Source: Flavihumibacter soli | GTDB lineage: Bacteria > Bacteroidota > Bacteroidia > Sphingobacteriales > Sphingobacteriaceae | NCBI RefSeq assembly: GCF_010692725.1 | Contig: NZ_JAAFZB010000095.1 | Location: forward strand, 496,001 to 560,000 | Length of the DNA: 64,000 nucleotides | Direction: 5' to 3' | In this document: one piece after another, positions 8,591 through 24,021 of the stretch | Numbering within the stretch: the stretch's first letter is position 1 | Layout: each line of letters begins with the position of its first letter | The notes under the pieces: model-generated | Databases searched by the model: none | The model's input: the letters and a program-made list of their open reading frames with translations, nothing else | Told to the model about the DNA's origin: nothing | Position numbers and translations under genes: made by a program

Positions 8591-8665
8591 TCAATGATTT
8601 TGTACTAAATACTATAATGGTTTATCGTATAAATATACAGGAATTTTTATTTCAGTGCAAACAGG

Positions 8666-9739
8666 TCAAATAAACATATTCAGCTGTTTGCCCGATGCGG
8701 GACGAAAGTGCCGGAGGTTTAAAGGCCTCAAACCGCGACCGGAAAGATAGCGATTTACGGAAATTTTGAATAACTGCTGAATACTTTCTGCGATCTTTCC
8801 GTCCCCCTTCATCCGGGCACCCCAGCGGCTGTCATTCAGTTTTCCGTCGTGGCATTCTGCGATCATGTGCAGCACTTTTTCGGCCCGGTCAGGAAATGCC
8901 TTATATATCCAGTCTGTGAATATCTCAGCAATGGATCCGTTCAGCCTGACCATGGTAAAGGCAGCCCCTCCGGCTCCTGCATCGGCGGCCGCTTTAATGA
9001 CCGTAGGGATCTCATCACTGTTCAACCCCGGAATGACCGGGGCCACCATTACTAATACGGGAATGTTCTCTTCAGCCAGACGTTCTATCAGCTTCAGGCG
9101 GCTTTTCCCGGTCACCGTCCTTGGCTCCAGCTTTAATCGCAGGTCCTCATTAAGAGAGTTCAGTGTGACCGCTACATGAACCAGGTCTAACGCGGCAAGC
9201 TCCTTCAAAAGGTCCAGGTCGCGCAGCATCAGGTTATTCTTACTGATAATGCTTACCGGATGCTGGTATTGCAGGAAAACTTTAAGCAGTGAGCGGGTGA
9301 TCTTCAGCTTTCGCTCGATGGGCTGGTAGCAGTCCGTATTTCCCGACATCATAATATTAGCGGGAGTGTAATTCTTTTTATTGAAATAGCTTTCAAGCAG
9401 CTCGGCGGCATTATGTTTCACGATGATCTTGCGCTCGAAATCCAGTCCTGCACTGAAGCCATAGTATTCGTGGGCGTTCCGGGCGTAACAGTAGAGACAG
9501 CCGTGCTCGCATCCCTGGTAAGGATTGATGGAATGCATAAAAGAAAGGTCCGGGCTGTTAGAAACGCTGACGATTTTTTTGGCCTTTTCCTTAAATATCT
9601 GTGTTTTTGAATCCTCCAGCATCGGCTCATCGATCCCCTCCTCGTGCTCTGCCACGTAACGGTTTTTCAGGAATTTATTATCGGTGTTGACCTGGGCGCC
9701 CCTTCCCTTAAAATATTCATTGTTCTCGTAGTGACCCAT
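8666..9739 (-). CDS. PA0069-family radical SAM protein (SplB-like)
   Basis: A 357-residue radical SAM protein. The [4Fe-4S] motif is CEHGCLYC (C-x3-C-x2-C), inside the NPYQGCEHGC context typical of the PA0069/Rv2578c group, which is distantly related to spore photoproduct lyase. The N-terminal KGRGAQ and later RWGARMKGDG stretches also fit this group. The substrate is unknown. The frame opens at a TTG (9745) but ATG 9739 gives MGHYENNEYFKGRG and is the likelier start. The gene faces away from the unknown plus-strand genes at 9933. Confidence 0.88.
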   Translation of the reverse strand: MGHYENNEYFKGRGAQVNTDNKFLKNRYVAEHEEGIDEPMLEDSKTQIFKEKAKKIVSVSNSPDLSFMHSINPYQGCEHGCLYCYARNAHEYYGFSAGLDFERKIIVKHNAAELLESYFNKKNYTPANIMMSGNTDCYQPIERKLKITRSLLKVFLQYQHPVSIISKNNLMLRDLDLLKELAALDLVHVAVTLNSLNEDLRLKLEPRTVTGKSRLKLIERLAEENIPVLVMVAPVIPGLNSDEIPTVIKAAADAGAGGAAFTMVRLNGSIAEIFTDWIYKAFPDRAEKVLHMIAECHDGKLNDSRWGARMKGDGKIAESIQQLFKISVNRYLSGRGLRPLNLRHFRPASGKQLNMFI

Positions 9740-9932
9740 ATGCAAAATTGCTAATTATATTAGTAATTATGCAATTATTTTTTGAATCGATTAGCAGCAT
9801 GCCGCTAGTTTCAATTTTGCCTTTACCAGGCCAAGTCCTTTATTCTCAGATAACTAATTAAAATTTATTTTCGACGATTGTTGTTGTTATGGCTTTAGTT
9901 AATTAAATTTAATTAACACTAAAATCGTACCC

Positions 9933-10298
9933 ATGGTAAATAAACGTGAACTCGAATCCAGAGTCGGAGATGTTTTAGCAGAGGCTGAAAACACCGATGA
10001 TAAAATTGTACAGTTCTCACTGATCTGGGAGGGAACAGTGAAACCGGCTTTGAGCCTGGTAAAGCTGATAACCGGCCCGAAAGTGGATGAGCGCCTGGAC
10101 AAACTGACTGACGCCGCCGATGGCTTGACGGGTGGTGGCGAAGACGGGATTAATAAGTTTGCGATTGTGTGGAACACCTTCCAGATCAGGCCCCTGTTGA
10201 AAACGGTCCAAATCTTTACCGGACCCAAGGTAGATAAGGCACTTAATAAATTTATCCTGATTGCCGATTCAATAAGCGGGAATGATGACGAAATGTAG
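9933..10298 (+). CDS. Unknown protein with internal duplication
   Basis: A 121-residue soluble protein that I do not recognise. It contains two copies of a ~45-residue unit: residues ~24-70 and ~74-118 both read F-x-I/L-x-W...KP or RPLL...ITGPKVDE or FTGPKVDK followed by an L-x-K-x-x-x-x-AD helix and an acidic end. There is no signal peptide. It is first of three plus-strand genes (9933-11913) converging on the eight-gene GMC-oxidoreductase operon. Codon use looks like its neighbours. No function is proposed. Confidence 0.6.
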   Translation: MVNKRELESRVGDVLAEAENTDDKIVQFSLIWEGTVKPALSLVKLITGPKVDERLDKLTDAADGLTGGGEDGINKFAIVWNTFQIRPLLKTVQIFTGPKVDKALNKFILIADSISGNDDEM

Positions 10299-10351
10299 TT
10301 ATTAGTGCTGCCTGTTAATTCTTAAACTTCGCAGCATCAAATTCTTGAAGG

Positions 10352-10756
10352 ATGGATTCATATAAAGCAGGTTCAGGCCAATTACAAATCCTACTAAGTA
10401 CGGATATTACGACCATTGGCCTGGCCGGCTCAAGGGCCACGGTATTTGTACCCGGGTCGGGGAATCCCAGTGTTCCTGTTGCGCATTCGGTTGACGCCAC
10501 CGGCGATATTCCTATTTCAGCGATCGGGCTGCCTTCATCTCTGAAAGGTAAACGGATCTCAATCATGTCGAAGATCGATCTGAGCATCGTCGGTGACCAG
10601 GAAGCAAGGGAAAAGGAGTTTAATAAATTGGTTGCACGGTATTTCCTTGACGGCGGTCCGGAACATCTTAAGAAATTCGAAGCGAACTTCCAGGAAGTAA
10701 CCCACTCTGATGATTTTAATACAGTCCTGATATTTAAGGCCATCAATATTGTTTAA
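10352..10756 (+). CDS. Unknown soluble protein
   Basis: A 134-residue protein with no signal peptide or membrane segment. It has a Gly/Ser/Val-rich N-terminal half with several short beta-strand-like segments and a charged helical segment in the second half (GDQEAREKEFNKLVARYFLD). I do not recognise the family. It ends 5 bases before the next gene, an exported protein, and is probably in one transcript with it. Confidence 0.6.
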   Translation: MDSYKAGSGQLQILLSTDITTIGLAGSRATVFVPGSGNPSVPVAHSVDATGDIPISAIGLPSSLKGKRISIMSKIDLSIVGDQEAREKEFNKLVARYFLDGGPEHLKKFEANFQEVTHSDDFNTVLIFKAINIV

Positions 10757-10761
10757 AAGCT

Positions 10762-11913
10762 ATGAGGAGGTTGTTTTATACCCTGGCAATAATAGCAGCT
10801 CTTCACTCCGGTGCCTACGCTCAAAAAACCGAAAAAAGTGCTGAGCTGAATGAGCTTGCGGCTCCGAACTCCCCGGCTTTTATGCTCCTTGATGTTTCAC
10901 CCAGCTTGGTGGAATCGCCTTCTACGCCAAAGGAGTTCACCTTTGCAGCGCTGCAGGCCTTTGCAGAGGGGCAGGGTTTTCCGCAAAACTTTGCGGTAGA
11001 ATTTACACCTTACTGGTGGCTCAGACCATCCGGCAGAGACGTTTATGCCTTTGCTGGATTGGACAGGAATGATATTTCAAAACAGAAACCATTCTCCGGT
11101 TTAAAGTTCAGCAGTATTTCGATGGCTTTTGTCAATAAGGACCTTATCCCTGACCAGATTGACCAGGAGCAGAAGATCTTCTCCGTAGGCTTCCACTCGA
11201 ATATCATTAAGATCCAGCAGCCGGGGTACGCTAAAGCACTGACCGGCGAAATCAGCAAGTGGCATAAGACCGTACAGGGCGAACTTGCGGTTATGCAGGA
11301 AGCGATTAACCAGGAGAATGATCCGGTCAAGCAGAGAAAACTGCAGCAGGAGCTAACTGACAAGGTGTGGCCGGTGAGTAAAAACATTGCTTCCAATATC
11401 AACAGGATCATTAACCAAAAACCACTTTTTAGCTGGAATGTGTCGGCGGCCTACTCCGTTTACGGGATTGATAACAACAGATTTGAAACAGGCCGCACCG
11501 GTGTGTGGACCACCCTGGCTACTTTTGTACCTTTTGGCAAGCGCCTGGATGAGATCCCTGTGAATTACCTGAACCTGCTCGTTTACTCCCGGTATATGCA
11601 AGATGAATTTATGCTTGGTGCGGACAACCTGGTGACCAGTTCAAATAGTATAGACCTGGGCGGGAAGATAGGGTTTCAGATAAGCAGGGTTTCGCTCGCC
11701 TGGGAATATATAGAACGCGATTACCGGAAAGCAACCCTCGGCTCGTCAAACAGGAATGTGGGCATTGTCAGCTACCGGCTGAACAATAACCTGTATATCA
11801 ACGGCACATTTGGCGAAGACTTCGGCCCTGTCGAAAAGATCGTGACACTATTCGGGATCAACTGGGGCTTTGGAGAAGAAAAAGTAGATCTGCCCTCGCC
11901 CAACCTGCAATAG
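10762..11913 (+). CDS. Exported, probable outer-membrane protein
   Basis: A 383-residue protein with a clear signal peptide (MRRLFYTLAIIAALHSGAYA, then Q). The mature part begins with a stretch common in Bacteroidota surface proteins (APNSPAFMLLDVSPSLVESP) and ends in alternating aromatic/polar strands (NNNLYINGTFGEDF, FGINWGFGEE) that suggest a small beta barrel. No family name can be given with confidence. It follows the unknown 10352 gene by 5 bases and converges on the GMC oxidoreductase with only 23 bases between stops. Confidence 0.65.
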   Translation: MRRLFYTLAIIAALHSGAYAQKTEKSAELNELAAPNSPAFMLLDVSPSLVESPSTPKEFTFAALQAFAEGQGFPQNFAVEFTPYWWLRPSGRDVYAFAGLDRNDISKQKPFSGLKFSSISMAFVNKDLIPDQIDQEQKIFSVGFHSNIIKIQQPGYAKALTGEISKWHKTVQGELAVMQEAINQENDPVKQRKLQQELTDKVWPVSKNIASNINRIINQKPLFSWNVSAAYSVYGIDNNRFETGRTGVWTTLATFVPFGKRLDEIPVNYLNLLVYSRYMQDEFMLGADNLVTSSNSIDLGGKIGFQISRVSLAWEYIERDYRKATLGSSNRNVGIVSYRLNNNLYINGTFGEDFGPVEKIVTLFGINWGFGEEKVDLPSPNLQ

Positions 11914-11936
11914 TGCTCATCTGCACATTCTTGATT

Positions 11937-14291
11937 CTAGTCGTTGTTAAAGAACTTACTGAAATAGGTTTCAACCACATTATTACTGAAGAAGGTGGAA
12001 AAGGCTTTTATAGCCAGCAGCGATTGCAGCTTGCTTTTAGTATGCAGGGCTTTAATGGTTCCCATCTGTGTAGCAAAATCAATCGGTATGATCTTTAGAA
12101 TTCCCCTGCCCAGGACAGGAGCCGAATTATCACTGCCATCAAAAACGGTTATGTAAAGCACGGTTGTATCCTTCCAGAGGTCGAAGGCTTTATCATGCTC
12201 AACTTGCTTATACGCGTAAAAATAATACTGGCGGCCGTCGTAGGTATTTAGCTGCATACTATACTTCATTTTTTTATGCGTCGGATCATCAGGGTCTTGA
12301 ACAAACAGGTTGAATATGCCCTTGCTGATGGTCAATGGTTTTTGGGACAAAGCCGGTGCGATGACTGTTCCAGCCATAAAGCCGGTATGGGTTTCATCGT
12401 TCACAAAGTTGTCGATATCTTCAGCCTGGACCGTCAGTGTGAACATAAAGGGCGAGCAGGTCTCTTTTCCCTTTTTATATCCGCTTTCGAAGTCCTCTTT
12501 CTCATCTGTGCTGAAATAACCCCGCATGGTTTCGGTAAACTGGACTGTAGGTTTAGGCTGAAATTCTTTCGCAATTACCACGGGCAGGTCGTAGGTGATC
12601 TCCCGGTTCATTCTCTGGAGGATGAGCTTGCAGGCGCGTTCGGTTAGGGCTGAGATCGTCAGGAGCGGGTTTGTTCCCAGCGGTCTTGGAAGGATAGCCC
12701 CATCAAGAACATGGAGGCCGGGATGCGTCGCTGTGCCGCTCTCTCCGAAGAATACGTTCCCGGTGTCATCAGTAACGCCGCTTGCAGCATCCTCGGCCAT
12801 ACAGCATCCGCCGAGGGGGTGGACTGTTATGAGATCGTAGTTCATCAGCTTATTCCAAACCAGGTTTTTTATGTATTTGCCGCCTAGGGCGGTAGTGGCT
12901 TTGAGCATGGTATCGCTAACCTTCTGAAATATAGGTTGTTTGCCAACATCAGGCCAGTCAATGTTCAGCCGCCCGTTCTTGAGGTTTAACCGGCCCTGTC
13001 CATCATCATGCGACATGACCAGGAAGGTTTCCATCCTGTTGGTTGCCCCATGGTAAGGACCGCGTATCAAACTTTCGGCTTCTTCACTGCATTCCTTTAA
13101 CCAGTCTGAAAATCCCCCGTCTGTATCAATTCCTATTGATCCTGCCAGCGACAGCATGCTCGTGTTAATAGCGTTGGCAATGGGCCCGGGAATACTGCCT
13201 TCTTCGAAGGTCATTCCGTCTTCGAGCTTATCCTGGTTGCGAAGGTCAATGATGGTCGTAATGCAGGGCCCCACCGGCGCGATCGGCTTATAATGCTCTT
13301 CATTGCAAAGCTTACCAAGTCCGATTCCGTTGATCTCATCTTCGCAATTATAAGCGAAGCCTAATACATCCCCGTTTCCTGTGAAGCGCTGACCCAGTGT
13401 TGGCGAGATCTCCAGCCCTTCCTGCTTTGAGCGAAGCAGGATCTCGGTACTTCCCAGTGCGCCGCCGGCAACGATAACCGTGGCTGCCCTTACAAACATG
13501 TACGGCGCCTTGAAGTCTTCCCGGCTGGTATTAAAGACCTCGAAATTTACAACCCACTTCCCGCCGGAGCGTTCCACATGCTTGACATCGATATTGCAGA
13601 AGATCTCCGCATCATGGTTAACTGCATCCGGAAGGTAGTTCATGATCAGCGTATTCTTTGCGTGATGATTGCAGCCAGTCACGCAGTCGCCACAGTTGAT
13701 GCACTGATGCTGATACACCCCGACATGATTGATACCCGTCTCGAAGCAGACGTTGATATCGGCATACCGGAAAGGCTGATTATTCTTCTCGGCGGCAAGG
13801 CGCATCGCGCGTGCCTTCGCGAGTTCGGGGTAACCGTTTTTATTTACCGGGTATGGCATTGGTCTGAGCATCTCTTTCGCGCGTTCAAAGCCTTCGTTCA
13901 GGCTCTGCCGGTCATTACGGATAGCGGCAGGCCACCGTTCGTCGAGAAGGACCCGCTCCTCGGGTTCGATGGAAACGTTGGCATTAACCAGTGATGTGCC
14001 GCCCAGGCCGCAGCCTTTGAACACGGAGATATTCTCGCTGATATGGAGGTCGTATAAGCCGTTCTTCCTCGCTTCACGCTGATCGGCATTGATCTGCATT
14101 TCCTTCTCGGCTTCTCCCATGGTCGCAGGGTAATCGCCGGGTTGAAACTCTTTCCCCTTTTCCAGTAAACAGACCTTCAGGCCGGCCCTTGAAAAGCGGC
14201 TGGCGGCAATGCTTCCGCCATAGCCGCTGCCAATTACTACTACGTCGTACTCCGGTTTTAAATTGGTGATGGGCCGTGATAACTTGTTCAT
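11937..14291 (-). CDS. Cholesterol-oxidase-like GMC oxidoreductase
   Basis: A 784-residue FAD enzyme. The Rossmann dinucleotide motif is at residues 16-40 (VVVIGSGYGGSIAASRF). The second FAD signature and the HPLGGC motif with the following LHVLDGAILPRPLGTNP block are those of cholesterol-oxidase-type GMC enzymes, which oxidise hydroxyl groups on sterols and other alcohols. Residues 197-207 hold C-x2-C-x2-C-x3-C, a ferredoxin-like cysteine cluster seen in some relatives. After the GMC core (to about 560) there is an extra ~220-residue C-terminal domain without an obvious family. There is no signal peptide. It is the last gene of an eight-gene operon, 5 bases after the metallophosphoesterase. 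The substrate is unknown; a sterol or lipid is inferred from the neighbours. Confidence 0.88.
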   Translation of the reverse strand: MNKLSRPITNLKPEYDVVVIGSGYGGSIAASRFSRAGLKVCLLEKGKEFQPGDYPATMGEAEKEMQINADQREARKNGLYDLHISENISVFKGCGLGGTSLVNANVSIEPEERVLLDERWPAAIRNDRQSLNEGFERAKEMLRPMPYPVNKNGYPELAKARAMRLAAEKNNQPFRYADINVCFETGINHVGVYQHQCINCGDCVTGCNHHAKNTLIMNYLPDAVNHDAEIFCNIDVKHVERSGGKWVVNFEVFNTSREDFKAPYMFVRAATVIVAGGALGSTEILLRSKQEGLEISPTLGQRFTGNGDVLGFAYNCEDEINGIGLGKLCNEEHYKPIAPVGPCITTIIDLRNQDKLEDGMTFEEGSIPGPIANAINTSMLSLAGSIGIDTDGGFSDWLKECSEEAESLIRGPYHGATNRMETFLVMSHDDGQGRLNLKNGRLNIDWPDVGKQPIFQKVSDTMLKATTALGGKYIKNLVWNKLMNYDLITVHPLGGCCMAEDAASGVTDDTGNVFFGESGTATHPGLHVLDGAILPRPLGTNPLLTISALTERACKLILQRMNREITYDLPVVIAKEFQPKPTVQFTETMRGYFSTDEKEDFESGYKKGKETCSPFMFTLTVQAEDIDNFVNDETHTGFMAGTVIAPALSQKPLTISKGIFNLFVQDPDDPTHKKMKYSMQLNTYDGRQYYFYAYKQVEHDKAFDLWKDTTVLYITVFDGSDNSAPVLGRGILKIIPIDFATQMGTIKALHTKSKLQSLLAIKAFSTFFSNNVVETYFSKFFNND

Positions 14292-14296
14292 AGCTT

Positions 14297-16027
14297 TTAC
14301 TTTTTAATGAATATGGGATTTTCGATCATTTCGTATTCCGGGAGATCACCGTTAAAACGGATGTCTTTGCCATTCTCGGTTTGATTCCAGCGGGTCGTTA
14401 CTTTTCTGATTCCAATGGGATATATGGTCAGACCCTTGTCGTTTATGCTCATGCGTAAGAAGTTCTTATAATTCTCGGAAGCCAGCGACGATGAAGATTC
14501 ATCAATGTGAATCCCGAAGAGCAGGTTCGAAAGCAGCAGGTAAAGGCCCATGAGGAGTCCGCCAATGAAGCTTCCCGCAATAAGTAATTCGAGGAGGAAT
14601 ATGAATTGCCAGTTGTAAAGGTGCATACTCTGATAAGTGCTTGTACCTATAAGCCAGATCAGCGAATAGATCAGCATGCATTGCAGAAGACCGTGGATTA
14701 GCCCGATGAGCCAGATCCCCCGGATACCGGTCTTAATATCGGTGAATTTGGTAAAGCCGTATATTAGCAACACAGAAAAAAGACTTAGTACCGGGTTGGA
14801 AAGCAGGATAAGACCAGTTTCACAGAGATATTTGCCAAAAGAGATGCTATCCAGATGTTCGAGATAATTGCCCTTATCATTAAAGGAAAAACGGCTGAGC
14901 AGCAGCCAGTAGAACAGCAGGTGGAGAAACCCCAGCAGAATAGAGAAGTAGTAGTTCTTAACGGGAAATATCAGGTTGCCAAACAGGAGCCGTAGCGATT
15001 TCTGTTTGTCAGGAAAGGCTTTCTGGAGGGTAATTCCCTTTTCTTTCAGCTTTTCCAGCTTTGGTGGAAGATTGTGGGTCAGATGCAGGAAGCCACCGCC
15101 ACCGCCGGCTCCGATATAGTGATTGGCCTCACCTTTCTCGTCTTTAAAACAGTAATGGGAGTAATGGTGAAGATCGCCGGTCAGCACCGTGGCAAGTTCA
15201 AATTTCTTCCCGATACATTCGGCCTTATCCTCGGTGATATATGTATCGATGAAGTAACGCAGCCTGTCGTAGGACTTGTCTTTGGCATAAAGCTGTTTAT
15301 AAATCCAGGCAGGTTCGGCCGTGCATAGAATTACCCTGTCGCCCGCCTGCATTTTATTCCGGGCAACATCCGTAAAGTAGTTAAGCTGGGGTTTGTCGAT
15401 ATCCTCATTCAGCTGGATGTCGGTCGCCCAGATCCAGTAATTATGTGGGAGTTTAAGCGCGAAGTAGCTGCGGGTCTGCATGGTTTTCCAGTTACCTATC
15501 CAGCGCTGCTGACAGAACACCTTCATGAAACTTCCAAGCCCGTCATACCAGTCGTGGTTACCCGGGATGGCATACATATGCGGGTAGTTCTCGTCCCCTT
15601 CTACTTCCGGAAGAGCCGCCTCAAACGGGACCTTAAATTTATTTTCGTAAATATCCCCCGTTGGTGTGGGATAGATCTGATCTCCGCCAAGGACAAGCAC
15701 CTTCGCCCGCGGAAGTACTCTTTCTTCACCCTTCACTTTTACCTTCAGAGAAGGTTGTGCTGCGGTAAGTGCGATCGAGTAGGTCGGATTGAAGCCGTCG
15801 CCGGTATCGCTGATGAAGTCGATCCAGATCTCTTCCATGGCAGTATATTCGGCGATCTCCCGACTGATGACACTTCCGGGTGCGGGAACGTCAAGGGCAG
15901 CCTCCATTTCCCGGCGGTCAGCGTAGTTCCCAAAAAGTCCGGAGATCACTGATTTAAGCCCTGTTTGAAGGAGTATAGCCGGCTCAAACCAGTTCACCAT
16001 CCCGGATTGCTTGTATTTGTACTTCAT
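14297..16027 (-). CDS. Metallophosphoesterase with C-terminal membrane domain
   Basis: A 576-residue protein in two parts. The N-terminal ~330 residues have calcineurin-like phosphoesterase motifs: SDTGDG, GGDQIYP, GNHDWYDG and GDLHHYSHY, giving the Asp, Asn and His ligands of a two-metal site. Residues ~350-520 contain about five hydrophobic segments, and the last ~55 residues are soluble. Such enzymes cleave phosphomonoesters or diesters; with a membrane anchor and a patatin neighbour, a phospholipid headgroup is plausible but inferred. It starts with a four-base ATGA overlap with the patatin gene. Confidence 0.85.
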   Translation of the reverse strand: MKYKYKQSGMVNWFEPAILLQTGLKSVISGLFGNYADRREMEAALDVPAPGSVISREIAEYTAMEEIWIDFISDTGDGFNPTYSIALTAAQPSLKVKVKGEERVLPRAKVLVLGGDQIYPTPTGDIYENKFKVPFEAALPEVEGDENYPHMYAIPGNHDWYDGLGSFMKVFCQQRWIGNWKTMQTRSYFALKLPHNYWIWATDIQLNEDIDKPQLNYFTDVARNKMQAGDRVILCTAEPAWIYKQLYAKDKSYDRLRYFIDTYITEDKAECIGKKFELATVLTGDLHHYSHYCFKDEKGEANHYIGAGGGGGFLHLTHNLPPKLEKLKEKGITLQKAFPDKQKSLRLLFGNLIFPVKNYYFSILLGFLHLLFYWLLLSRFSFNDKGNYLEHLDSISFGKYLCETGLILLSNPVLSLFSVLLIYGFTKFTDIKTGIRGIWLIGLIHGLLQCMLIYSLIWLIGTSTYQSMHLYNWQFIFLLELLIAGSFIGGLLMGLYLLLSNLLFGIHIDESSSSLASENYKNFLRMSINDKGLTIYPIGIRKVTTRWNQTENGKDIRFNGDLPEYEMIENPIFIKK

Positions 16028-17412
16028 GCCTTCTCGAAAAAACTGTTCAGTATCCTTAGTTTAGATTTCCTTCTGCCGGACCACCCTGTTCCGGCTTTGG
16101 TATATAGATAAAACGCGTTCTTTATGCGGTGGAAAGCAGGCTGGTAAAGCTGGTAAGGACCGGATTCAGAGCCGCCCTCGGTTAAATAGGCCAGACCAGT
16201 TTTGCACTCAAGTCCCAGTAAAAAGTCAGTAACGTTATTCACCCTGATCCGGAGCCTCAGACGATGCTCTTTATTCCTAAATTTAAACATAAATGCCGGC
16301 TCTACGCCCCCCTTTTCTGTTGTTATCCTGTTCTCGAAACCGGATATAAAATTTTCCTTATCGAAAGAAACAGAAGAATAGAGCTGACGTGTAAGCTGCC
16401 CGTTTATCTCCCTGATGAAGAAAGCAAGGTGCACAGAGCATAACAGGTTCTCACCGTTTACTACAACCTCACCCTGGAACTGCTGCCTGAAATGGACGGT
16501 AATTCCCGGGTCTTTCATAGTCGTTGTTTCATTTACAGGACTGTTGAGATCAAAGGGCTGTCGTGCCGCAAGCATGTCCCGGGTATCTGAATAACCCATG
16601 TTAATCAATGTGTCGGCATCGATCCTGTTCAGGAAGAAATCCGGATCAAGAGGCAAGGGATATTCCGGTTTAATGATGTATAATTTCACAGGTTCCTCCC
16701 CGCCAGCTGACGTAGAAGCATTTGCTGAACGAAGCAGTTCTATTTCACTATACAAGCCACCGCAGGCGCTCATTTCGATCATATGGACATACTGGTTCAG
16801 GGTTCCGTTCAGGTATTCCCGGGTATTCCCGATACACCAGACCAGCCATACTTCCTTTGCGCCACGTCGGAGGGCTTCCGTCAGGTTAGCATCCTTTATC
16901 CACACGGCATCAGTATACCAGTCCTTGCCGATCCTCACAGCCGGCATGAACATAGGCAGGGACATCCCGGCTATAAGATGATCTTCAGTGATCTCTGAGT
17001 GGTGAATAGCCTCAATGCTTTTATCAGAGAATTTGCAGACGTTGAAGGTCGCATCGAAGGCTGTATTAGACCGGATCTTATCAACATGGATTCCCAGGGC
17101 AGGAAAGATCTTTCTCCTTATGCCGGAAGCGCTGCCCATGGCTGAGAGCCTGTGCATTCCCAGATAATTGCTGAAAGGCAAGGCACGCATAAAGCCCTGA
17201 AGGTTGAGCTTTCGCCATCGCATGGCTGACTCTTCGGGGCTCAATCCCGAAGCCATCATCGCGGTTCCGAAAATGCCTCCTGAAGTGCCATCCACATGAT
17301 TGAAAGAAATTCCGTCTTCTTTGAGTGCCTGGAGGACACCGGCATGGTAAGCCAGCCGAAGCCCGCCCCCAGCGAGAACCAATGAACGTTTTATGGACTT
17401 CCCGTTCTTCAT
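16024..17412 (-). CDS. Patatin-like phospholipase
   Basis: A 462-residue patatin-fold lipid acyl hydrolase. The oxyanion motif GGGLRLAYHAG is near residue 16, the nucleophile elbow GTSGG near residue 43, and the catalytic Asp is probably in WYTDAVW (a DG[AG]-type position, here DA). Patatins use this Ser-Asp dyad to remove acyl chains from phospholipids or esters. The last ~170 residues form an additional beta-rich region with no family I can name. ATGA overlaps join it to the small membrane gene before and the phosphoesterase after it, so it is firmly inside the operon. Confidence 0.88.
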   Translation of the reverse strand: MKNGKSIKRSLVLAGGGLRLAYHAGVLQALKEDGISFNHVDGTSGGIFGTAMMASGLSPEESAMRWRKLNLQGFMRALPFSNYLGMHRLSAMGSASGIRRKIFPALGIHVDKIRSNTAFDATFNVCKFSDKSIEAIHHSEITEDHLIAGMSLPMFMPAVRIGKDWYTDAVWIKDANLTEALRRGAKEVWLVWCIGNTREYLNGTLNQYVHMIEMSACGGLYSEIELLRSANASTSAGGEEPVKLYIIKPEYPLPLDPDFFLNRIDADTLINMGYSDTRDMLAARQPFDLNSPVNETTTMKDPGITVHFRQQFQGEVVVNGENLLCSVHLAFFIREINGQLTRQLYSSVSFDKENFISGFENRITTEKGGVEPAFMFKFRNKEHRLRLRIRVNNVTDFLLGLECKTGLAYLTEGGSESGPYQLYQPAFHRIKNAFYLYTKAGTGWSGRRKSKLRILNSFFEKA

Positions 17413-17834
17413 CTGTCAGGAGCTAAGGCTTGCAGCTTATGACCTCTCGTATAGAGGTAGATAATGATCCACCCGATGAGCTCATAGCCCATGAAAAATA
17501 ATGCCAGGAAGTTCGGGATGCCATCAGCCACAATAGATACAAGCCTCGCCATTATTCCGGATCCCATGATCAGCAGGAAAAGCAAATTAAATCGCGGGTG
17601 ACTAAAGATCTCTTTCTTAAAAAGGAGGGCGAAGATGCCGAACCCGAGTTCCAGTGCTCTCAGGAAACGGTACTGGCTGAGCAGGTTGATCCTGTGGGTA
17701 TCCTGAAGACTATTAATATCCATCCCGAACAATAACCGGAAATCAAAATAAGGATTGATGAAGGCACCCCAGAATCCCGCAGCTACTACCAGCCCGATGT
17801 AAGTATAAAAGAAGAAGTGGCTGGCCGGTCTCAT
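17409..17834 (-). CDS. Small four-helix membrane protein
   Basis: A 141-residue membrane protein with four hydrophobic segments and a basic C-terminus. I do not recognise a family. The frame opens at 17861, but ATG 17834 overlaps the preceding stop as ATGA, the same coupling seen at the next two junctions, so it is the better start. It begins MRPASHFFFYTYIGL. The position suggests a membrane partner for the operon's enzymes. Confidence 0.7.
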   Translation of the reverse strand: MRPASHFFFYTYIGLVVAAGFWGAFINPYFDFRLLFGMDINSLQDTHRINLLSQYRFLRALELGFGIFALLFKKEIFSHPRFNLLFLLIMGSGIMARLVSIVADGIPNFLALFFMGYELIGWIIIYLYTRGHKLQALAPDR

Positions 17835-18208
17835 ATGAACTGAATTGTGCGGTAATACCATATGAAGATCAGCCCGGAGACAAGGTCAAACACGGCGACC
17901 CCTAAAGCCAGCTCGTTGAAGATTCCCAGGTAGATACCTATACCGACTGCTATGGCGGCACCAAGTTTCTGAAACGAGGCCCATAGAACTGCTGCATCAT
18001 TTTTCTGAACGCTGTAAAGTGCATGAAGCATCATTCCGCCGAACAGCGTCATGAACATCCCAACGATGGCGAAAAAGTATTTACTGGCAAGGCTGATCTC
18101 AGCGCCTACTATATTGAGAACAAAGCCCGGTGAAACCATCTGCGTGATGCCGGAACAAGCGGTGGCAATCGAGATAATAATGATAATAAGCCTGAGGTAT
18201 CGTTTCAT
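17831..18208 (-). CDS. Small membrane protein
   Basis: A 125-residue protein with four predicted membrane helices; the first is very hydrophobic (LIIIIISIATACSG). It resembles in layout the DoxX/DUF4345-like small membrane proteins, but I cannot assign it. It ends in an ATGA overlap with the next membrane gene. The 40-base gap before it is the largest inside this operon. Confidence 0.65.
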   Translation of the reverse strand: MKRYLRLIIIIISIATACSGITQMVSPGFVLNIVGAEISLASKYFFAIVGMFMTLFGGMMLHALYSVQKNDAAVLWASFQKLGAAIAVGIGIYLGIFNELALGVAVFDLVSGLIFIWYYRTIQFI

Positions 18209-18248
18209 CTGCGGACTGTGGTTAAGTTTAAATCGTCTTGCTAATACC

Positions 18249-18746
18249 TTAACGCCTCAGGTTTCTTTGGCGGGCCTTGGCAATAAAGAAGTACATTGTT
18301 ATCAGCCACATGATGGTCAGGATGATCCAGCGAACGTCGTTGAGGAACATCCACTCCTTTAACAGCTTCTGAAGCACCGCCGGGTCGGTCACACCGGCCT
18401 TAAACTGGTTGTTGATATCCTCAATATATCTTTGCTGCACAATGACGGGTATCAGCAGGCCGGGTATCCAGGCAATGGGTACCCAGCGAAGCCTGCTTTT
18501 CCACTCCGTTATGAGCATGACAACCAATGCTACAGCCATGATCGGGATGGTGACAAAGAAAAACTTAGTAGCCAGGTTGGTTTGCGGAATTATCGCATCA
18601 TAGTAATTGGAGATGTTCAGGGTTTTCGGGTAATTCGGGAACCAGAATAGATGCAGGGACCAGAACATGCCCAGGTAGATCGAAGCACAAAAGAAAATGT
18701 AGGCATTGTTGATGTCAACCAGTGTTTGTTTCGCGTTACTCATCAT
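18249..18746 (-). CDS. Membrane protein, possibly DUF1772/DUF2269-like
   Basis: A 165-residue membrane protein with about four hydrophobic helices and an aromatic-rich region (FWSLHLFWFPNY). The middle holds a basic loop (EWKSRLRWVP) and a charged segment before the last helix. I cannot assign it firmly; DUF1772-like proteins share this layout. Two Met codons start the frame. It lies 15 bases after the acetoacetate-decarboxylase-like gene. Confidence 0.65.
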   Translation of the reverse strand: MMSNAKQTLVDINNAYIFFCASIYLGMFWSLHLFWFPNYPKTLNISNYYDAIIPQTNLATKFFFVTIPIMAVALVVMLITEWKSRLRWVPIAWIPGLLIPVIVQQRYIEDINNQFKAGVTDPAVLQKLLKEWMFLNDVRWIILTIMWLITMYFFIAKARQRNLRR

Positions 18747-18761
18747 TTGCTGGGTTTAATA

Positions 18762-19652
18762 TTAAATCCTGAATTTTTGATAGTCGGTGAACGAAGGGGC
18801 TGGCAACCACTCTTCATCAAGCGTAAGGTCAGCGACGCTTTCAAAGCCTTCCGGGGTAACGCTTGCTGGCTTGTCCGGATAGGTCATAAACCAACATTCA
18901 AAATGGTCATCTAAAACCCCGATTGCGGCAGGGGTATAAAAAGTGAAGAATGGCTTGCTTTCAATATTCAGCTCACGCATGAATTGGGTTCTCGGGTGAT
19001 CGCCAATGAAGAGGGTGCCTTTAGCACTATTACCTAAACGGATGCCTGCCTTGGCATCGATATAGATGTAAGAAGCAATCAGCATATTCCGGAAATGGCT
19101 GTAGTTCACCGAGCCTACCTTAACAGGCAGGTTGCACTTGGCTGGCTTCTCGATCTCAATACGAAAGGCAAATTGACCGTCCTTTTCATATTGTGCGGAA
19201 ACCATTTTGTCCGTTATGAGAAAATCGAGGCTGGCCTTGTGTTTGGGCATCCCCCAGATTCCCTTACCCCCTTTCACCGATATTTCGGAACTTACCGGCA
19301 GGTCCAGGATGAACTGACCAGTATGATAGTGTTTCATGAAGATCACCGGAAGCATTTTAGGAGCAGGGCTTCTGCCTCGTGTACAGGCTATTGCAATACT
19401 GTATTCAATATACTTACCTATACTCGTTTCCCGGTAATCAATGACCGTGACCATAAAGATCGCCTTTCCGTTGAGATACCGGACGGGATGAATCTCATTG
19501 CCCGGGAGGAGCGCGGCCGCTTTATCATAGTCACAGAAGAATCCGGCCATCAGTGCCGGCGAGTTCCTGGCCTGAACGGGAAGTGTGAACGGTATCCCGT
19601 CGACCAGGGCAAATCTTTCGGAATAGTTCTTAATTCGTAAGGGTACTCCCAT
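18762..19652 (-). CDS. Acetoacetate decarboxylase family protein
   Basis: A 296-residue protein of the acetoacetate decarboxylase (ADC) fold. The stretch GGKGIWGMPKHKASLDF corresponds to the region around the Schiff-base lysine of ADC (family form G-x-PKK). Classical ADC removes CO2 from 3-keto acids; many family members act instead on other keto or aldol substrates. A beta-keto acid from sterol or fatty-acid breakdown would fit the neighbours, but this is inference. It lies 12 bases after the alpha/beta hydrolase. Confidence 0.8.
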   Translation of the reverse strand: MGVPLRIKNYSERFALVDGIPFTLPVQARNSPALMAGFFCDYDKAAALLPGNEIHPVRYLNGKAIFMVTVIDYRETSIGKYIEYSIAIACTRGRSPAPKMLPVIFMKHYHTGQFILDLPVSSEISVKGGKGIWGMPKHKASLDFLITDKMVSAQYEKDGQFAFRIEIEKPAKCNLPVKVGSVNYSHFRNMLIASYIYIDAKAGIRLGNSAKGTLFIGDHPRTQFMRELNIESKPFFTFYTPAAIGVLDDHFECWFMTYPDKPASVTPEGFESVADLTLDEEWLPAPSFTDYQKFRI

Positions 19653-19664
19653 AGCGACGGGGTT

Positions 19665-20678
19665 TTAATTGTTCAACTCTTCCAGTATGGTCGGAAAAAT
19701 GTCGTTGATCGCATTTTTTCCGAGAAATATATCAAGGTGGCTGTAGTTATTGAATTTGTACAGGTGGTGATATCCCGGCCTGAGTTTATCAAAGTACCGG
19801 AAGGTGTTTTCCTGGCTTCTGCTGCAGAAGCATTTATTCAGCTTCCCGGTTAGGAACACGAAACGTGCATCAGTTCTGGGAATGAAAGAAGTATAGTCGA
19901 TCTTCCCGTTTGCCGAAACCAGCGCACCCTTTTTAACGCATTTTTTAATATGATCGAAGAAAGAAAGGGGTACATTTCCGAACTCATTCCGAATCCATTC
20001 TTTTGTATCTGTGTTCAGATTAGCGAGTTCCCATAGGGCGGGGAAGCCCGTACCATAAGTAAAACTCACAAACTTGCCCACATCCGTATCCTCTTCGTGA
20101 TGAGTTAGTCTGACAAGTGTCCGGAACGCCTTAGCCTTCAGGTCGGGGGCGTCATCGGCCCACTGGGGGTTAAGATACTTGGTAATTGGTTTAACGATCG
20201 GAACGATGTAGTTGAGTTTGAACGCCGAAAACTCGGGAACTACCGGGTGAAGGGAGACTGCATTGGATATCACAGTCTTCACCTGTGGAACGAGACCCTG
20301 AACCGCAGATATCATGAAGCTGGTCGAGCCCTGGCAATGAATGATGGCATTCATCTCTTCAACCCCGGTTATTCTGCAGATTTCCTGGACCGCTGCTGGA
20401 TGATCATTAATGGCAACCTGGTCGAGGTTCCATTCGTTCTTGCGGCATTCCGTGCTCCCGCGCCAGTTCTCCAGCCAGACATCATATCCTGCGCCGGCAA
20501 GAATATTAAGCAGATTTTTTCGGTTCGGCGGATTGAAGATGTTACTTCTTACACCGGCACCGTGCACCAGCATAACAACTCCTTTATCTTTGCGGTGGTC
20601 ACCTTTTAGCCGCCATAAGTTGCAGTTAAAACCATCAAGTGCTTTAAACGGGAATACATCAAAAGAATGATCCGGCAT
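19665..20678 (-). CDS. Alpha/beta hydrolase with Cys at the nucleophile elbow
   Basis: A 337-residue alpha/beta hydrolase and the first gene of the operon. The oxyanion loop is LVHGAG (residues 38-42), and NWRGSTE fits the usual region after strand 4. At the nucleophile elbow the sequence is HCQGS (residues 114-118): Cys115 stands where most relatives have Ser (GHSMG). A late YSHLDIF supplies a likely catalytic His. Cys nucleophiles are known in dienelactone hydrolase. I recall the HC-x-GS form in hydrolases linked to or fused with GMC oxidoreductases, which would match the last gene here, but I could not check this. Confidence 0.82.
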   Translation of the reverse strand: MPDHSFDVFPFKALDGFNCNLWRLKGDHRKDKGVVMLVHGAGVRSNIFNPPNRKNLLNILAGAGYDVWLENWRGSTECRKNEWNLDQVAINDHPAAVQEICRITGVEEMNAIIHCQGSTSFMISAVQGLVPQVKTVISNAVSLHPVVPEFSAFKLNYIVPIVKPITKYLNPQWADDAPDLKAKAFRTLVRLTHHEEDTDVGKFVSFTYGTGFPALWELANLNTDTKEWIRNEFGNVPLSFFDHIKKCVKKGALVSANGKIDYTSFIPRTDARFVFLTGKLNKCFCSRSQENTFRYFDKLRPGYHHLYKFNNYSHLDIFLGKNAINDIFPTILEELNN

Positions 20679-20873
20679 GATAAATATGGACAGTTAAACC
20701 GCTTAATTAATTATGCTGCAAAACCTGTAACCTATCTTTTGACTATCTGAATGGATTTATCGTAGCATGCTATGTTAACCGGGATGTGGATAAGTATCAG
20801 GAAGAATTTAATTCCTAATTTAATATAAAGCAATTAGTTGGTATTATCAATAGCGAGAGCGGTGAGCACCCTT

Positions 20874-21509
20874 TCAAAGATCTACCAGTTTGTGCTTGAT
20901 GGCATAAAGCACCAGCCCTACACGGCTCTTTGTATTCAACTTTTCGAATAGTTGATCGCGGTAACCATCCACTGTCCGGGGACTTACATTCATCCGGTCG
21001 GCAATTTCCTTATAGGTCAGCTCTGTGGCTGCGAGTTTGAGGAACTCTATCTCGCGCGGATTTAAATTCGGCTGTCCGTCAGGTTCCGTAAAGTTTTTGA
21101 CCAGGTGACGGGTGACAAACGGCGGAAAATATGTTCCCGAATCGCTGACCTGGTCTAAGGCCTTGATGAACTCCGTTTCATCGGCGTCTTTAAGGATGTA
21201 GCCTTTAACCCCCAGGCTGATCATGGAAAGGACCTTGTCCGCATCGTCGAACATACTCAGGACTATGATAGCCACATCCGGATAATTTTCTTTCATCCAG
21301 GCTGCTGTGGCCGGCCCGTCCATCAGGGGCATATTGATGTCCAGCAGTACTATTCGAGGCTCAAGCTTTTTACTGATCTTATTGGTGAAGTCTTTCCCGT
21401 TGTCGGCTACGAACAGGACGTTGTAGCGCGGATACGCATTGACCGTTCGGGCAAGTCCGTCTCTGAACATGCGGTGATCATCAACCAGGGCCACTTGGAT
21501 TTTCGCCAT
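20874..21509 (-). CDS. NarL-family response regulator
   Basis: A 211-residue regulator. Its receiver domain (residues 1-120) has the acidic pair VDDH, the phospho-acceptor Asp in VLLDINMP and the Lys in YILKDAD. The C-terminal LuxR-type helix-turn-helix (LNPREIEFLKLAATELTYKEIA..SPRTVDGY) binds DNA. ATG 21509 is preferred over the TTG three bases before it. It overlaps the histidine kinase by 29 bases and lies 195 bases before the eight-gene operon on the same strand, making that operon a natural but unproven target. Confidence 0.93.
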   Translation of the reverse strand: MAKIQVALVDDHRMFRDGLARTVNAYPRYNVLFVADNGKDFTNKISKKLEPRIVLLDINMPLMDGPATAAWMKENYPDVAIIVLSMFDDADKVLSMISLGVKGYILKDADETEFIKALDQVSDSGTYFPPFVTRHLVKNFTEPDGQPNLNPREIEFLKLAATELTYKEIADRMNVSPRTVDGYRDQLFEKLNTKSRVGLVLYAIKHKLVDL

Positions 21510-22314
21510 CAAAGTTCAGATCCCTTGCTATGGGTAGATTGACATTGATTATACAACCTTTGCCCGGTGAACTGGTGATAGATAGGGTTGCGCCAATGAG
21601 TTTAGCCCTGCTTTTCATGTTTCTCAGCCCTGAGCCTTCAGGAGTGTCGACGTTTCCAGGGGAAAAACCTATTCCATCATCGTGAATCTTTAAATTAAAC
21701 ATTTCAGGGGAATAGTCCAAATTGATTTTCAGTCGATTAGCCTCAGAGTGCTTGAGGATATTTTGCATGGACTCCTGGAAGATCCGGAAAATAACCAGCT
21801 CGCGTTTCTGGCCCAGCGGGAAGTTATTTCCGGAAATGTCGAATTCAATAATATAGTTCCCAGACCTGTTAATCCGCTCCAATTCGGCTTGCAGGGTTGT
21901 AACAAGTCCTTTTGCCGCGACAGTTTCATAACTCAGGCTTTTCGAAAGGTCGCGAAGGTCGTTGATCACATGCGAGATCAAATCTCTACTTTCCTCTATG
22001 CGTACCTGCTTCTCATTATCCGAAAGGTCCTTTGTAGCTCCCAGGCTGAGCTTGACAAATGACAGTACCTGCCCGATATTATCATGTATCTCCCGCGACA
22101 CGTGATTCAGAGTCGACTCCTGTATCTCAAGTTCTGACCTCAGCAGTTCCTTGTCATAATGCGCCTTAATGGCCTCTTTTTCCCTTTGATTCTTTAGTTG
22201 CTTGCTGCGGTATAAAAAAATGAAATAAATGATAAATCCCGCAAGGCATATAAATAGTGCTGCGCCTGAGAATAGTAAAATATAAACATCTAAATTCTCA
22301 TTGTTTCTGCTCAT
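21481..22314 (-). CDS. HisKA_3-type sensor histidine kinase
   Basis: A 277-residue kinase with one N-terminal membrane helix (about residues 10-34), a coiled linker, the HisKA_3 phospho-acceptor motif REIHDNIGQ (His about residue 77) and a HATPase domain with DDGIGF and GSGLRNM motifs. There is no extracytoplasmic sensor domain, so the signal may come from the adjacent membrane protein or lipoprotein. Its ATG follows the upstream stop directly, and its end overlaps the response regulator gene. Confidence 0.92.
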   Translation of the reverse strand: MSRNNENLDVYILLFSGAALFICLAGFIIYFIFLYRSKQLKNQREKEAIKAHYDKELLRSELEIQESTLNHVSREIHDNIGQVLSFVKLSLGATKDLSDNEKQVRIEESRDLISHVINDLRDLSKSLSYETVAAKGLVTTLQAELERINRSGNYIIEFDISGNNFPLGQKRELVIFRIFQESMQNILKHSEANRLKINLDYSPEMFNLKIHDDGIGFSPGNVDTPEGSGLRNMKSRAKLIGATLSITSSPGKGCIINVNLPIARDLNFDGENPSGPG

Positions 22315-22959
22315 TTATGAAGGTCTCCTTATGTTGGCTTGTTCAGTATATAATGCTATCCCCAGAATTGTATAAAAGAGGATATTCGTATAGTAGATCA
22401 TATGATTGAGAGGTTCCAAATTCAGTTGGTTGCGCTTAAAATAATTTTGAAGGCCGAAGCTTAAAAATACAGCTGATGAAAACAGCAAGTAGCCGCCGGC
22501 AACCCAGAATTCGCTCTGCCTGAAAAGATTCCGCGCAATGGGTTCTTCCAGCATCTGCTTGAATAACAGCAATGACAGGATAAGAAAAATACCATGCGAC
22601 AGCAGCAGGATATTTGAAGGAAAGGTTCTTATATCCTGCAGGAAAACGGAATTCATGATCCCGAGAACTGCTACCGGGATGATTGAATAGATGACGAGTT
22701 TCTTAGTTCGGGATGACCTAAGTAAACCATGGAAAACTAAGGCAGTTCCGGCGTATTCAATACAGGATAGCAGATGGTAAACCGCCATATTATTATAGCC
22801 GCGTGAGTTAAGGAAGCCGCTGGCAGCTTCACTTACCAATGTAATCCCTACCACCACACAGAGAATCTTAAACGGCAGGCTTAAAGTTCGCAGATTAAGC
22901 AGGCCGAACAAGAAAACTGCCGCCAGCAGGCTCAGGTATAGAATAAACCGGGTTGCCAT
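22315..22959 (-). CDS. Seven-helix-like membrane protein
   Basis: A 214-residue membrane protein with six or seven hydrophobic helices. I do not recognise the family; 7TM-like proteins of this size sit beside HisKA_3 kinases in several Bacteroidota. ATG 22959 (MATRFILYLS) is preferred to the TTG at 23007, which would overlap the lipoprotein gene. The stop is directly followed by the kinase ATG, suggesting joint expression and perhaps a sensory role. Confidence 0.7.
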   Translation of the reverse strand: MATRFILYLSLLAAVFLFGLLNLRTLSLPFKILCVVVGITLVSEAASGFLNSRGYNNMAVYHLLSCIEYAGTALVFHGLLRSSRTKKLVIYSIIPVAVLGIMNSVFLQDIRTFPSNILLLSHGIFLILSLLLFKQMLEEPIARNLFRQSEFWVAGGYLLFSSAVFLSFGLQNYFKRNQLNLEPLNHMIYYTNILFYTILGIALYTEQANIRRPS

Positions 22960-22963
22960 TGTC

Positions 22964-23971: not shown

Positions 23972-24021
23972 GCTATATCAAGTAATTAACCCCTCTTTAT
24001 AAATCTTTAATTAACAAAACC

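What the first reader, a model, noticed from the sequence alone, without database searches (positions are those of the whole stretch)
11937..20678. Eight-gene operon joining GMC oxidoreductase, ADC-like, patatin, phosphoesterase and hydrolase
Seen: eight same-strand genes, three junctions with ATGA overlaps and others 5-40 bases apart. They encode a Cys-elbow alpha/beta hydrolase, an acetoacetate-decarboxylase-like protein, three small membrane proteins, a patatin, a metallophosphoesterase with membrane helices and a cholesterol-oxidase-like GMC enzyme. Known: these families act on esters, beta-keto acids, acyl chains, phosphate esters and ring hydroxyls. Inference: together they could take up or remodel a lipid or sterol at the inner membrane. 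I know no described pathway with this set.
Basis: partly seen in the sequence, partly recalled or inferred. Interest (0 to 1): 0.78.

Follow-up and report, generated by a model that had tools for sequence, protein, structure and literature searches.

The report
Conserved eight-gene lipid-enzyme cassette
Eight bacterial genes of known enzyme families travel together as one rare block in distant bacteria, most likely to strip and oxidise a greasy, sterol-like ester, though nobody has yet tested what they act on.

Summary
In detail: eight same-strand genes at 11937-20678, with three ATGA overlaps (D-E, E-F, F-G) once E starts at its conserved internal Met.

The set is conserved beyond the window. 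In all 11 B-bearing loci read, A (hydrolase) and B (ADC-like) are neighbours and H (GMC) lies within 5 kb. These span four named Bacteroidota families and an Arthrobacter plasmid (Actinomycetota). In the host's family, B and H occur in the same 5 of 399 genomes. The block sits in a variable site; 6 of 6 congeners read there lack it.

A's only solved relatives at E <= 0.001 are gastric lipase and lysosomal acid lipase/cholesteryl ester hydrolase, but A has Cys for Ser. H's closest are cholesterol oxidases. In 7 other loci (three phyla) A and H are one protein, joined through Hc, a predicted beta-barrel.

Best reading: A and H take consecutive steps on one hydrophobic ester (acyl release or transfer, then oxidation of the hydroxyl to a ketone), and B uses the carbonyl through a Schiff-base lysine. 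Substrate and direction are unknown. A PHA synthase domain was absent in 8 of 8 operon genomes and a sterol/hopanoid cyclase domain in 5 of 8.

The parts
19665..20678 (-). Gene A: alpha/beta hydrolase related to acid lipases, with Cys115 in place of the catalytic Ser; His314 in the YxHLD motif
   Evidence: PDB relatives gastric lipase and lysosomal acid lipase/cholesteryl ester hydrolase; HCxG[SA] in 19 of 19 A proteins incl. window
20334..20336 (-). Codon of A Cys115, the putative nucleophile
   Evidence: Aligned with the Ser of GHSQGT in gastric lipase
18762..19652 (-). Gene B: acetoacetate-decarboxylase-superfamily protein, putative Schiff-base Lys137 in SVKGGKGIWGMPKH
   Evidence: PF06314 51.2 bits vs cut-off 29.8; motif invariant in 11 of 11; a low-confidence model still ranks ADC-family structures 1-14
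18249..18746 (-). Gene C: small membrane protein, anthrone-oxygenase-like
   Evidence: PF08592 matches 5 of 8 C proteins at E <= 0.01, best 2.2e-6, not the window's own at that level; hydropathy
17831..18208 (-). Gene D: small protein with four predicted membrane helices
   Evidence: present in 8 of 11 B-bearing loci incl. window
17409..17834 (-). Gene E: DUF4345 membrane protein; start taken at conserved Met10 of the longer ORF 17861-17409
   Evidence: PF14248 39.9 bits; ATGA overlap with D
16024..17412 (-). Gene F: patatin-like acyl hydrolase, Ser44 and Asp168; in 2 of 8 F proteins fused to the Hc barrel
   Evidence: PF01734 71.2 bits; alignment; fusions L027, L031
14297..16027 (-). Gene G: metallophosphoesterase with C-terminal membrane helices
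   Evidence: PF00149; GGD, GNHD and GD[LM]H kept in 9 of 9 aligned (L026 G not in that alignment); hydropathy
11937..14291 (-). Gene H: cholesterol-oxidase-like GMC flavoprotein, catalytic pair His491/Asn541, CxxCxxCxxxC cluster, C-terminal barrel
13671..13703 (-). H cysteine cluster C197-x2-C200-x2-C203-x3-C207, possible Fe-S site
   Evidence: Four Cys in 18 of 20 H proteins incl. window, three in the other two; no Cys in the aligned stretch of cholesterol oxidase 4u2l
11937..12611 (-). Hc domain of H (residues 561-784): predicted beta-barrel plus C-terminal helix, no Pfam family
20679..20873 (-). 195-bp gap upstream of A, likely promoter region of the operon
   Evidence: one weak sigma-70-type match at 20850-20822, and fewer such matches in the region than in shuffles

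Best explanation
The eight genes are one accessory lipid-processing cassette, gained or lost as a unit. SHOWN by comparison: A, B and H are inherited together; A and H are physically fused in other phyla, so they very probably act on the same molecule. INFERRED: A, an acid-lipase-like hydrolase with a Cys nucleophile, releases (or transfers) an acyl group at a hydroxyl of a hydrophobic alcohol such as a sterol, triterpenoid or long-chain alcohol; H, a cholesterol-oxidase-like flavoprotein, oxidises that hydroxyl to a carbonyl, perhaps passing electrons out through a Cys-ligated Fe-S site; B forms a Schiff base with the new carbonyl through Lys137 and decarboxylates or rearranges it (a beta-keto acid would be the natural substrate). 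F and G remove a further acyl and a phosphate group, and C, D, E and the membrane half of G hold the work at the inner membrane. The Hc barrel, carried by H, by the fused proteins or, in two loci, by F, would bind the lipid. Direction (breakdown versus making a modified lipid) is open; I favour breakdown or remodelling of an acquired ester.
For: Co-occurrence: B and H in the same 5 of 399 family genomes; in a phylum draw of 296, the 3 genomes with B all carry H close by. Neighbourhood: window, L023, L024, L025, L026, L027, L031, L036, L037, L038, L039 all hold A next to B with H within 5 kb; L039 is an Arthrobacter plasmid with H-G-A-B-C-D-F. Fusion H-Hc-A in 7 loci: L029 (G092), L040 Bernardetia, L041 Leptospira, L042 Rhizobium, L043 Azospirillum, L045 Persicobacter, L046 Variovorax. 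Hc moves between partners: in L031 it is on F and not on H; in L027 on both. Chemistry: A's profile finds only acid lipases at E <= 0.001; H finds cholesterol oxidases first with the His and Asn columns kept in 20 of 20; B is over the ADC cut-off. G is directly upstream of the fusion in L029 and L043; another metallophosphoesterase stands there in L046 and after H in L037. Distance matrices of A, B, D, F, G, H correlate at r 0.71-0.95 over 7-12 loci (no correction for species relatedness).
Against: No activity or lipid is known. H fails the curated cholesterol oxidase model (162 bits, cut-off 850). A lacks the Ser of lipases, and where I expect the catalytic acid it has Asn (position by recalled motif), so ester hydrolysis is not certain. 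No 3-oxosteroid 1-dehydrogenase over its cut-off in 8 of 8 operon genomes and no cyclase domain in 5 of 8, so neither steroid catabolism nor endogenous sterols is supported. B was not found near the 7 fused genes, nor elsewhere on the six plasmids that carry them or in G092, so H and A can work without B. L037 and L038 keep only A-B-H, so C-F and G are not essential. C does not co-vary with the others (r 0.25-0.44); A-H is 0.78 and F-H 0.77. In the stretches read, L031 has no G or E, and L030 has the flavin part of H with only a weak A-like match (E 3e-4) and no Hc or B.
Confidence: 0.42

Rival explanations
1. Biosynthesis: the cassette makes an unusual membrane lipid. A, with its Cys, acts as an acyltransferase, H makes a ketone or aldehyde on a long-chain or terpenoid alcohol, B decarboxylates a beta-keto intermediate, and G and F trim phosphate and acyl groups during assembly.
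For: A has Cys where its lipase relatives have Ser, as acyl-transferring PHA synthases do (recalled), and weak PHA-synthase similarity was seen (E 0.001, far below cut-off). Small membrane proteins and a membrane phosphoesterase fit assembly at the membrane. Of 20 flanking proteins scanned, few look like transport or regulation (MFS and HTH in L039, an AraC-type protein in L036).
Against: None of A to H is a ketosynthase, ligase, methyltransferase or carrier by Pfam; the FabH-like gene at 7517-8590 stays in place in 6 of 6 operon-free congeners read, so it is not part of the cassette. A lone alcohol-oxidising flavoprotein plus hydrolases suits breakdown better.
Confidence: 0.28
2. Catabolism of a beta-hydroxy compound: H turns a secondary alcohol into a beta-dicarbonyl, A cleaves the C-C or ester bond of it (as oxidised polyvinyl alcohol hydrolase does), and B decarboxylates the beta-keto acid. 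Not sterol-like at all.
For: Unites GMC, Cys-hydrolase and ADC chemistry; B is strongly conserved (50% identity window to Arthrobacter), implying a fixed substrate motif.
Against: A's solved relatives are acid lipases, not C-C hydrolases; PHA synthase domain absent in 8 of 8 operon genomes, so no native poly-beta-hydroxy acid store by that route. The polyvinyl alcohol analogy is recalled; I saw only a search listing.
Confidence: 0.12
3. Anti-phage or stress island: a patatin, a phosphoesterase and membrane proteins in a variable genomic site could be a defence system.
For: The cassette occupies a variable site between conserved genes, and patatins occur in defence systems (recalled).
Against: No PADLOC model matched any of the 8 proteins at E <= 0.01; A, B, F, G and H keep the residues expected of working enzymes.
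Confidence: 0.03

Closest known systems
Cholesterol oxidase, GMC type (PDB 4u2l, 1b4v, 1coy)
   Same: Best solved relatives of H; FAD motif and the catalytic His and Asn columns kept
   Different: H is 784 aa with an extra C-terminal barrel and a 4-Cys cluster, and scores 162 bits against a cut-off of 850 for the curated cholesterol oxidase model
Acid lipases: gastric lipase and lysosomal acid lipase/cholesteryl ester hydrolase (PDB 1hlg, 1k8q, 6v7n)
   Same: The only solved relatives of A's profile at E <= 0.001; shared GYDVWL, H[SC]QG and YxHLD stretches
   Different: Ser nucleophile replaced by Cys in 19 of 19; only about 90-120 residues align well; no hydrophobic leader seen in A
Acetoacetate decarboxylase superfamily (ADC; aldolase-dehydratase; MppR)
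   Same: PF06314 over cut-off; fold search of a poor model ranks these structures 1-14; GxPK stretch shared with a Moraxella ADC-family protein
   Different: No ADC chain found by sequence in the PDB even at E <= 10; PF06314 covers only residues 27-168; His follows the Lys
FAD glucose dehydrogenase catalytic subunit of Burkholderia cepacia (PMC6719666, passages read)
   Same: A GMC flavoprotein with a Cys-ligated 3Fe-4S cluster near FAD and a His/Asn pair: a precedent for H's cysteines carrying electrons
   Different: Sugar substrate, hitchhiker and cytochrome subunits, different Cys spacing (212, 213, 218, 222); not named among H's PDB hits at E <= 1e-5
Patatin-like phospholipases (PlpD and relatives)
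   Same: F over the Pfam cut-off; PlpD is F's best PDB hit, 9.8e-7 over 56 residues; Ser44/Asp168 invariant in 8 of 8
   Different: DAV or DSV instead of the usual DG[GA] at the Asp (recalled motif); extra C-terminal part, which in L027 and L031 is Hc

Membership tests
GMC oxidoreductases | GMC_oxred_N and GMC_oxred_C domains over cut-off | tested here: met
   55/23 and 39.2/24.6 bits
GMC oxidoreductases | Catalytic His with His/Asn partner | tested here: met
   His491 and Asn541 align with cholesterol oxidase HPLGGC and GVNP; both residues kept in 20 of 20
Cholesterol oxidase (NF058674) | Score over the curated cut-off of 850 bits | tested here: not met
   162.3 bits
Cholesterol oxidase (NF058674) | Activity on a 3-beta-hydroxysterol | not testable with these tools
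   Needs an enzyme assay
Acid lipase family | Sequence similarity to solved acid lipases | tested here: met
   1hlg 6.5e-10, 1k8q 8.8e-9, 6v7n 1.1e-8; no other chain at E <= 0.001
Acid lipase family | Ser nucleophile in GxSxG | tested here: not met
   Cys in 19 of 19
Acid lipase family | Catalytic His in the C-terminal YxHLD motif | tested here: inconclusive
   The motif aligns with gastric lipase but with a very low domain score
Acetoacetate decarboxylase superfamily | PF06314 over cut-off | tested here: met
   51.2/29.8 bits
Acetoacetate decarboxylase superfamily | Schiff-base lysine at the active site | tested here: inconclusive
   PK invariant in 11 of 11 and aligned with GYPK of a Moraxella ADC-family protein; that this is the catalytic Lys of the Clostridium enzyme is recalled, not tested
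Patatin | GxSxG Ser and Asp dyad | tested here: met
   Ser44 and Asp168 invariant in 8 of 8
Fe-S binding in H | Fer4-type model over cut-off | tested here: inconclusive
   Fer4_9, Fer4_18, Fer4_6 and others touch the Cys stretch at E 0.006-0.03, all below cut-off
PHA synthase | TIGR01838/TIGR01836 over cut-off for A | tested here: not met
   17.7 and 17.2 bits against 622.65 and 365.3
Known anti-phage defence systems | PADLOC-DB model match | tested here: not met
   0 of 8 proteins at E <= 0.01

The most novel reading that the evidence does not exclude
A previously undescribed bacterial route for hydrophobic (sterol- or terpenoid-like) esters: a Cys-nucleophile relative of cholesteryl ester hydrolase and an Fe-S-bearing relative of cholesterol oxidase, joined by a lipid-binding barrel and fused into one enzyme in several phyla, turn an acylated alcohol directly into a ketone. 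A Schiff-base enzyme of the acetoacetate decarboxylase superfamily then decarboxylates the product, an analogue of C4 demethylation in sterols.
Probability: 0.17. Interest if true: 0.85.

Novelty: new variant of a known kind. Interest (0 to 1): 0.56.

Why it matters
Gene sets kept together across phyla, fused in some lineages and present all-or-nothing in others are a strong sign of a real pathway. Here the members point to a hydrophobic ester being opened and oxidised, by a lipase-fold enzyme that swapped Ser for Cys and an oxidase with a possible Fe-S exit wire. The fused A-H proteins, labelled 'alpha/beta fold hydrolase' or 'GMC oxidoreductase' where the plasmid records annotate them, can now be tested with a specific question: which acylated alcohol is the substrate?

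Tried and rejected

Idea that all F proteins carry a degenerate Hc: profile comparison gave E 0.18 over 20 columns, rejected; only the F proteins of L027 and L031 clearly carry it. Idea that D and E, or C and E, are duplicates: not supported.

PHA metabolism: rejected on absence of PhaC_N in 8 of 8 operon genomes. Endogenous hopanoid/sterol: cyclase C-domain found in 3 of 8 (G092, G576, G624), absent in G000, G428, G676, G266, G179. Steroid ring degradation: no 3-oxosteroid 1-dehydrogenase over cut-off in 8 of 8; below the cut-off all 14 control genomes also ring, so that test is blunt. Phage defence: no PADLOC match. The flanking two-component genes (20874-22314) as cassette regulator: they flank it in L023 but relatives also occur without it in L068, so unproven. 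A suberin metaproteome (PMC5158114, passages) and a Collimonas study (PMC12542777, passages) gave nothing on this set. That the set is not in print rests, in a library that lacks most subscription papers. The Schiff-base paper search was badly worded and returned chemistry papers. Two searches for B's relatives in the PDB gave only unrelated chains or none, as did a search with the Moraxella ADC-family protein.
Full report
Observation. The D-E junction is a 31-base overlap if E starts at its first ATG, but Met10 of E is an invariant column among five aligned E proteins, the window's own included, and starting there gives an ATGA overlap. Downstream the next gene is convergent (10762-11913, plus strand); upstream there are 195 bases before a response-regulator gene. 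Consensus promoter and terminator scans found fewer matches than shuffles and are not used.

Families. Pfam puts A in Abhydrolase_1 (just over its cut-off), B in ADC, E in DUF4345, F in Patatin, G in Metallophos and H in GMC oxidoreductases. C belongs with the anthrone-oxygenase-like membrane proteins when its relatives are scanned (5 of 8 members at E <= 0.01, best 2.2e-6; the window member had none at that level). D remains without a family (one of 8 members touches DUF4345 at E 0.0036).

Conservation. In the host's family, H (E <= 1e-40) and B (E <= 1e-20) were found in exactly the same 5 of 399 genomes (G000, G428, G576, G624, G676); by chance, ignoring shared ancestry, that is about 1e-11. 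In a phylum-wide draw of 296 genomes, H-like matches at E <= 1e-20 occur in 19, of which 5 are strong (E <= 1e-60: G000, G266, G092, G283, G179) and the other 14 are weaker GMC matches, best 2.0e-33. B occurs in 3 of the 296 (G000, G266, G179), all with H close by. So in this draw B implies H (3 of 3), while strong H occurs without B in G092 (fused form) and G283. A draw of 395 genomes gave the same three B genomes. The cassette is therefore rare and patchy.

Which loci were read. From I read the stretches of the window's genome and the four other strong genomes; the 14 weaker ones were not read. From I read all five. From the genome-contig scan I read all four (L023 is the G428 record by its coordinates, so G428 is counted once). 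From the plasmid search, 94 records matched and 10 covered at least 80% of H; I fetched 8 of these 10 (H1-H3, H5-H9) and left H4 and H10, which show the same scores as H3 and H9. That makes 20 loci, the window included, carrying H or its flavin part.

Gene order. Eleven of the 20 hold B, and in all eleven A is next to B and H lies within 5 kb: window and L023 (Pedobacter MAG; all eight genes), L024 (Ilyomonas limi, Chitinophagaceae; no E), L025 (Prolixibacteraceae; all eight), L026 (Lunatimonas salinarum, Cyclobacteriaceae; A-B-G-H), L027 (G266; all eight, order G-H-A-B-C-E-D-F), L031 (G179; H-A-B-C-D-F), L036 (G676; all eight), L037 and L038 (G576, G624; A-B-H only) and L039 (Arthrobacter sp. 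StoSoilB13 plasmid; H-G-A-B-C-D-F) (families). C, D, F and G each occur in 8 of the 11, E in 5 of 11. In L037 and L038 a 425-aa ORF follows H; in L037 it is a metallophosphoesterase by Pfam with no BLAST match to G at E <= 1, suggesting replacement; the L038 one was not scanned.

Fusion. Seven further loci have H, its C-terminal domain (Hc) and A in one ORF of 1,134-1,251 aa: L029 (G092), L040 (Bernardetia), L041 (Leptospira), L042 (Rhizobium), L043 (Azospirillum), L045 (Persicobacter), L046 (Variovorax). None has B in the stretch read; B was also not found in the rest of G092 (E <= 1e-20) or on the six plasmids (E <= 1e-5), while their chromosomes were not searched. G lies directly upstream in L029 and L043, and a Metallophos protein in L046. 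The remaining two loci are L044 (Pseudonocardia: A, the flavin part of H and Hc as separate neighbours, no B) and L030 (G283: flavin part only, with a weak A-like match, E 3e-4, beside other hydrolases). Hc is also fused to the patatin F in L027 and L031, and in L031 it is missing from H. A domain that moves between oxidase, oxidase-hydrolase fusion and patatin suggests a common substrate or docking site.

Active sites. A: HC[QFVY]G[SA] in 19 of 19 proteins. Against the solved structures A's profile finds only three chains at E <= 0.001: gastric lipases 1hlg and 1k8q, and lysosomal acid lipase/cholesteryl ester hydrolase 6v7n. A single-sequence search to E 0.1 adds two phosphatase regulatory chains at 0.017-0.023, which I take as chance. 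The Cys aligns with the catalytic Ser. Where I expect the catalytic acid A reads Asn281, conserved in the alignment; that assignment rests on recalled motif position. B: SVKGGKGIWGMPKH is invariant in 11 of 11; a low-confidence model ranks ADC-family structures 1 to 14, and BLAST aligns the GMPK stretch with GYPK of a Moraxella ADC-family protein. F: Ser44 and Asp168 in 8 of 8. G: GGD, GNHD and GD[LM]H in 9 of 9 aligned (the L026 protein was left out by my ORF script). H: GSG[YF]GG FAD motif, His491 and Asn541 kept in 20 of 20, aligned with cholesterol oxidase 4u2l. H also has CxxCxxCxxxC in 18 of 20; in L039 and L044 (Actinomycetota) the second Cys is lost. Cholesterol oxidase has no cysteines in the aligned stretch. 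A GMC dehydrogenase with a 3Fe-4S cluster near FAD has been solved (PMC6719666, passages read), so the idea has a precedent, but the spacing differs and Fer4 models stay below cut-off.

Genomic site. In the same genus I searched 17 genomes for the neighbouring gene 8666-9745; 10 had it at E <= 1e-60. Two of these carry the cassette (G000, G428). Of the 8 others I fetched 6; the two left out had the gene only in pieces. In 6 of 6 the conserved blocks on either side of the cassette (5379-9745 and 24699-31941) sit together with none of A to H between them at E <= 1e-15: 58 bases apart in L066, 0.6-0.7 kb in L067, L069, L071, and with other genes between them in L068 and L070. The cassette sits in a variable site.

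Substrate. No PHA synthase domain in 8 of 8 operon genomes, no sterol/hopanoid cyclase domain in 5 of 8 including the window's genome, no 3-oxosteroid dehydrogenase over cut-off in 8 of 8. These results count against PHA, against home-made sterols in most of these carriers and, bluntly, against ordinary steroid catabolism. They leave acquired or non-sterol hydrophobic esters.

Co-evolution. Pairwise distance matrices correlate among A, B, D, F, G, H (r 0.71-0.95, 7-12 loci per pair, no correction for species relatedness; E not tested) but poorly with C (r 0.25-0.44), which comes in at least two kinds: the window's C is 76% identical to that of Prolixibacteraceae L025 but 38% to that of same-family L036. 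C is thus the exchangeable member.

Conclusion. Shown: a real, conserved, accessory operon whose core is A-B-H, with A and H fused elsewhere. Inferred: sequential acyl removal (or transfer), oxidation and Schiff-base chemistry on one hydrophobic ester at the inner membrane. Unknown: the substrate and direction. No paper describing the set came up.

Noticed in passing
window 9746-24698: Variable insertion site between two blocks (5379-9745 and 24699-31941) that are kept together in 6 of 6 operon-free congeners read.
   Followed up: partly
window 18249-18746: Gene C is 76% identical to the C of a Prolixibacteraceae MAG (L025) but only 38% to that of a same-family genome (L036), unlike A, B, F, G and H: exchangeable kinds of C.
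   Followed up: partly
L037:15548-16825 and L038:15722-16999: Where G is missing, an ORF of 425 aa follows H; in L037 it is a metallophosphoesterase without BLAST similarity to G, so a phosphoesterase may be needed in the pathway. The L038 ORF was not scanned.
   Followed up: partly
L031:7419-8969 and 12057-13862: In G179 the Hc domain is on the patatin F and missing from H, the reverse of the window.
   Followed up: partly
L041:9105-10523: A second GMC-like ORF (27% identity to H's flavin part) directly follows the fused H-Hc-A gene on a Leptospira plasmid.
   Followed up: no
window 20874-22314; L068:4360-5759: LuxR-type response regulator and histidine kinase upstream of the operon; conserved beside it in L023, but relatives also sit in the same variable site without the operon in L068.
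   Followed up: partly
window 9933-11913 and 22315-24555: Six proteins beside the operon (121, 134, 383, 230, 168, 177 aa) have no Pfam family at E <= 0.01.
   Followed up: no
L063/L065 (G398:C12:106755-107818): The neighbouring gene (relative of window 8666-9745) is found as two overlapping matches in separate ORFs in this congener.
   Followed up: no
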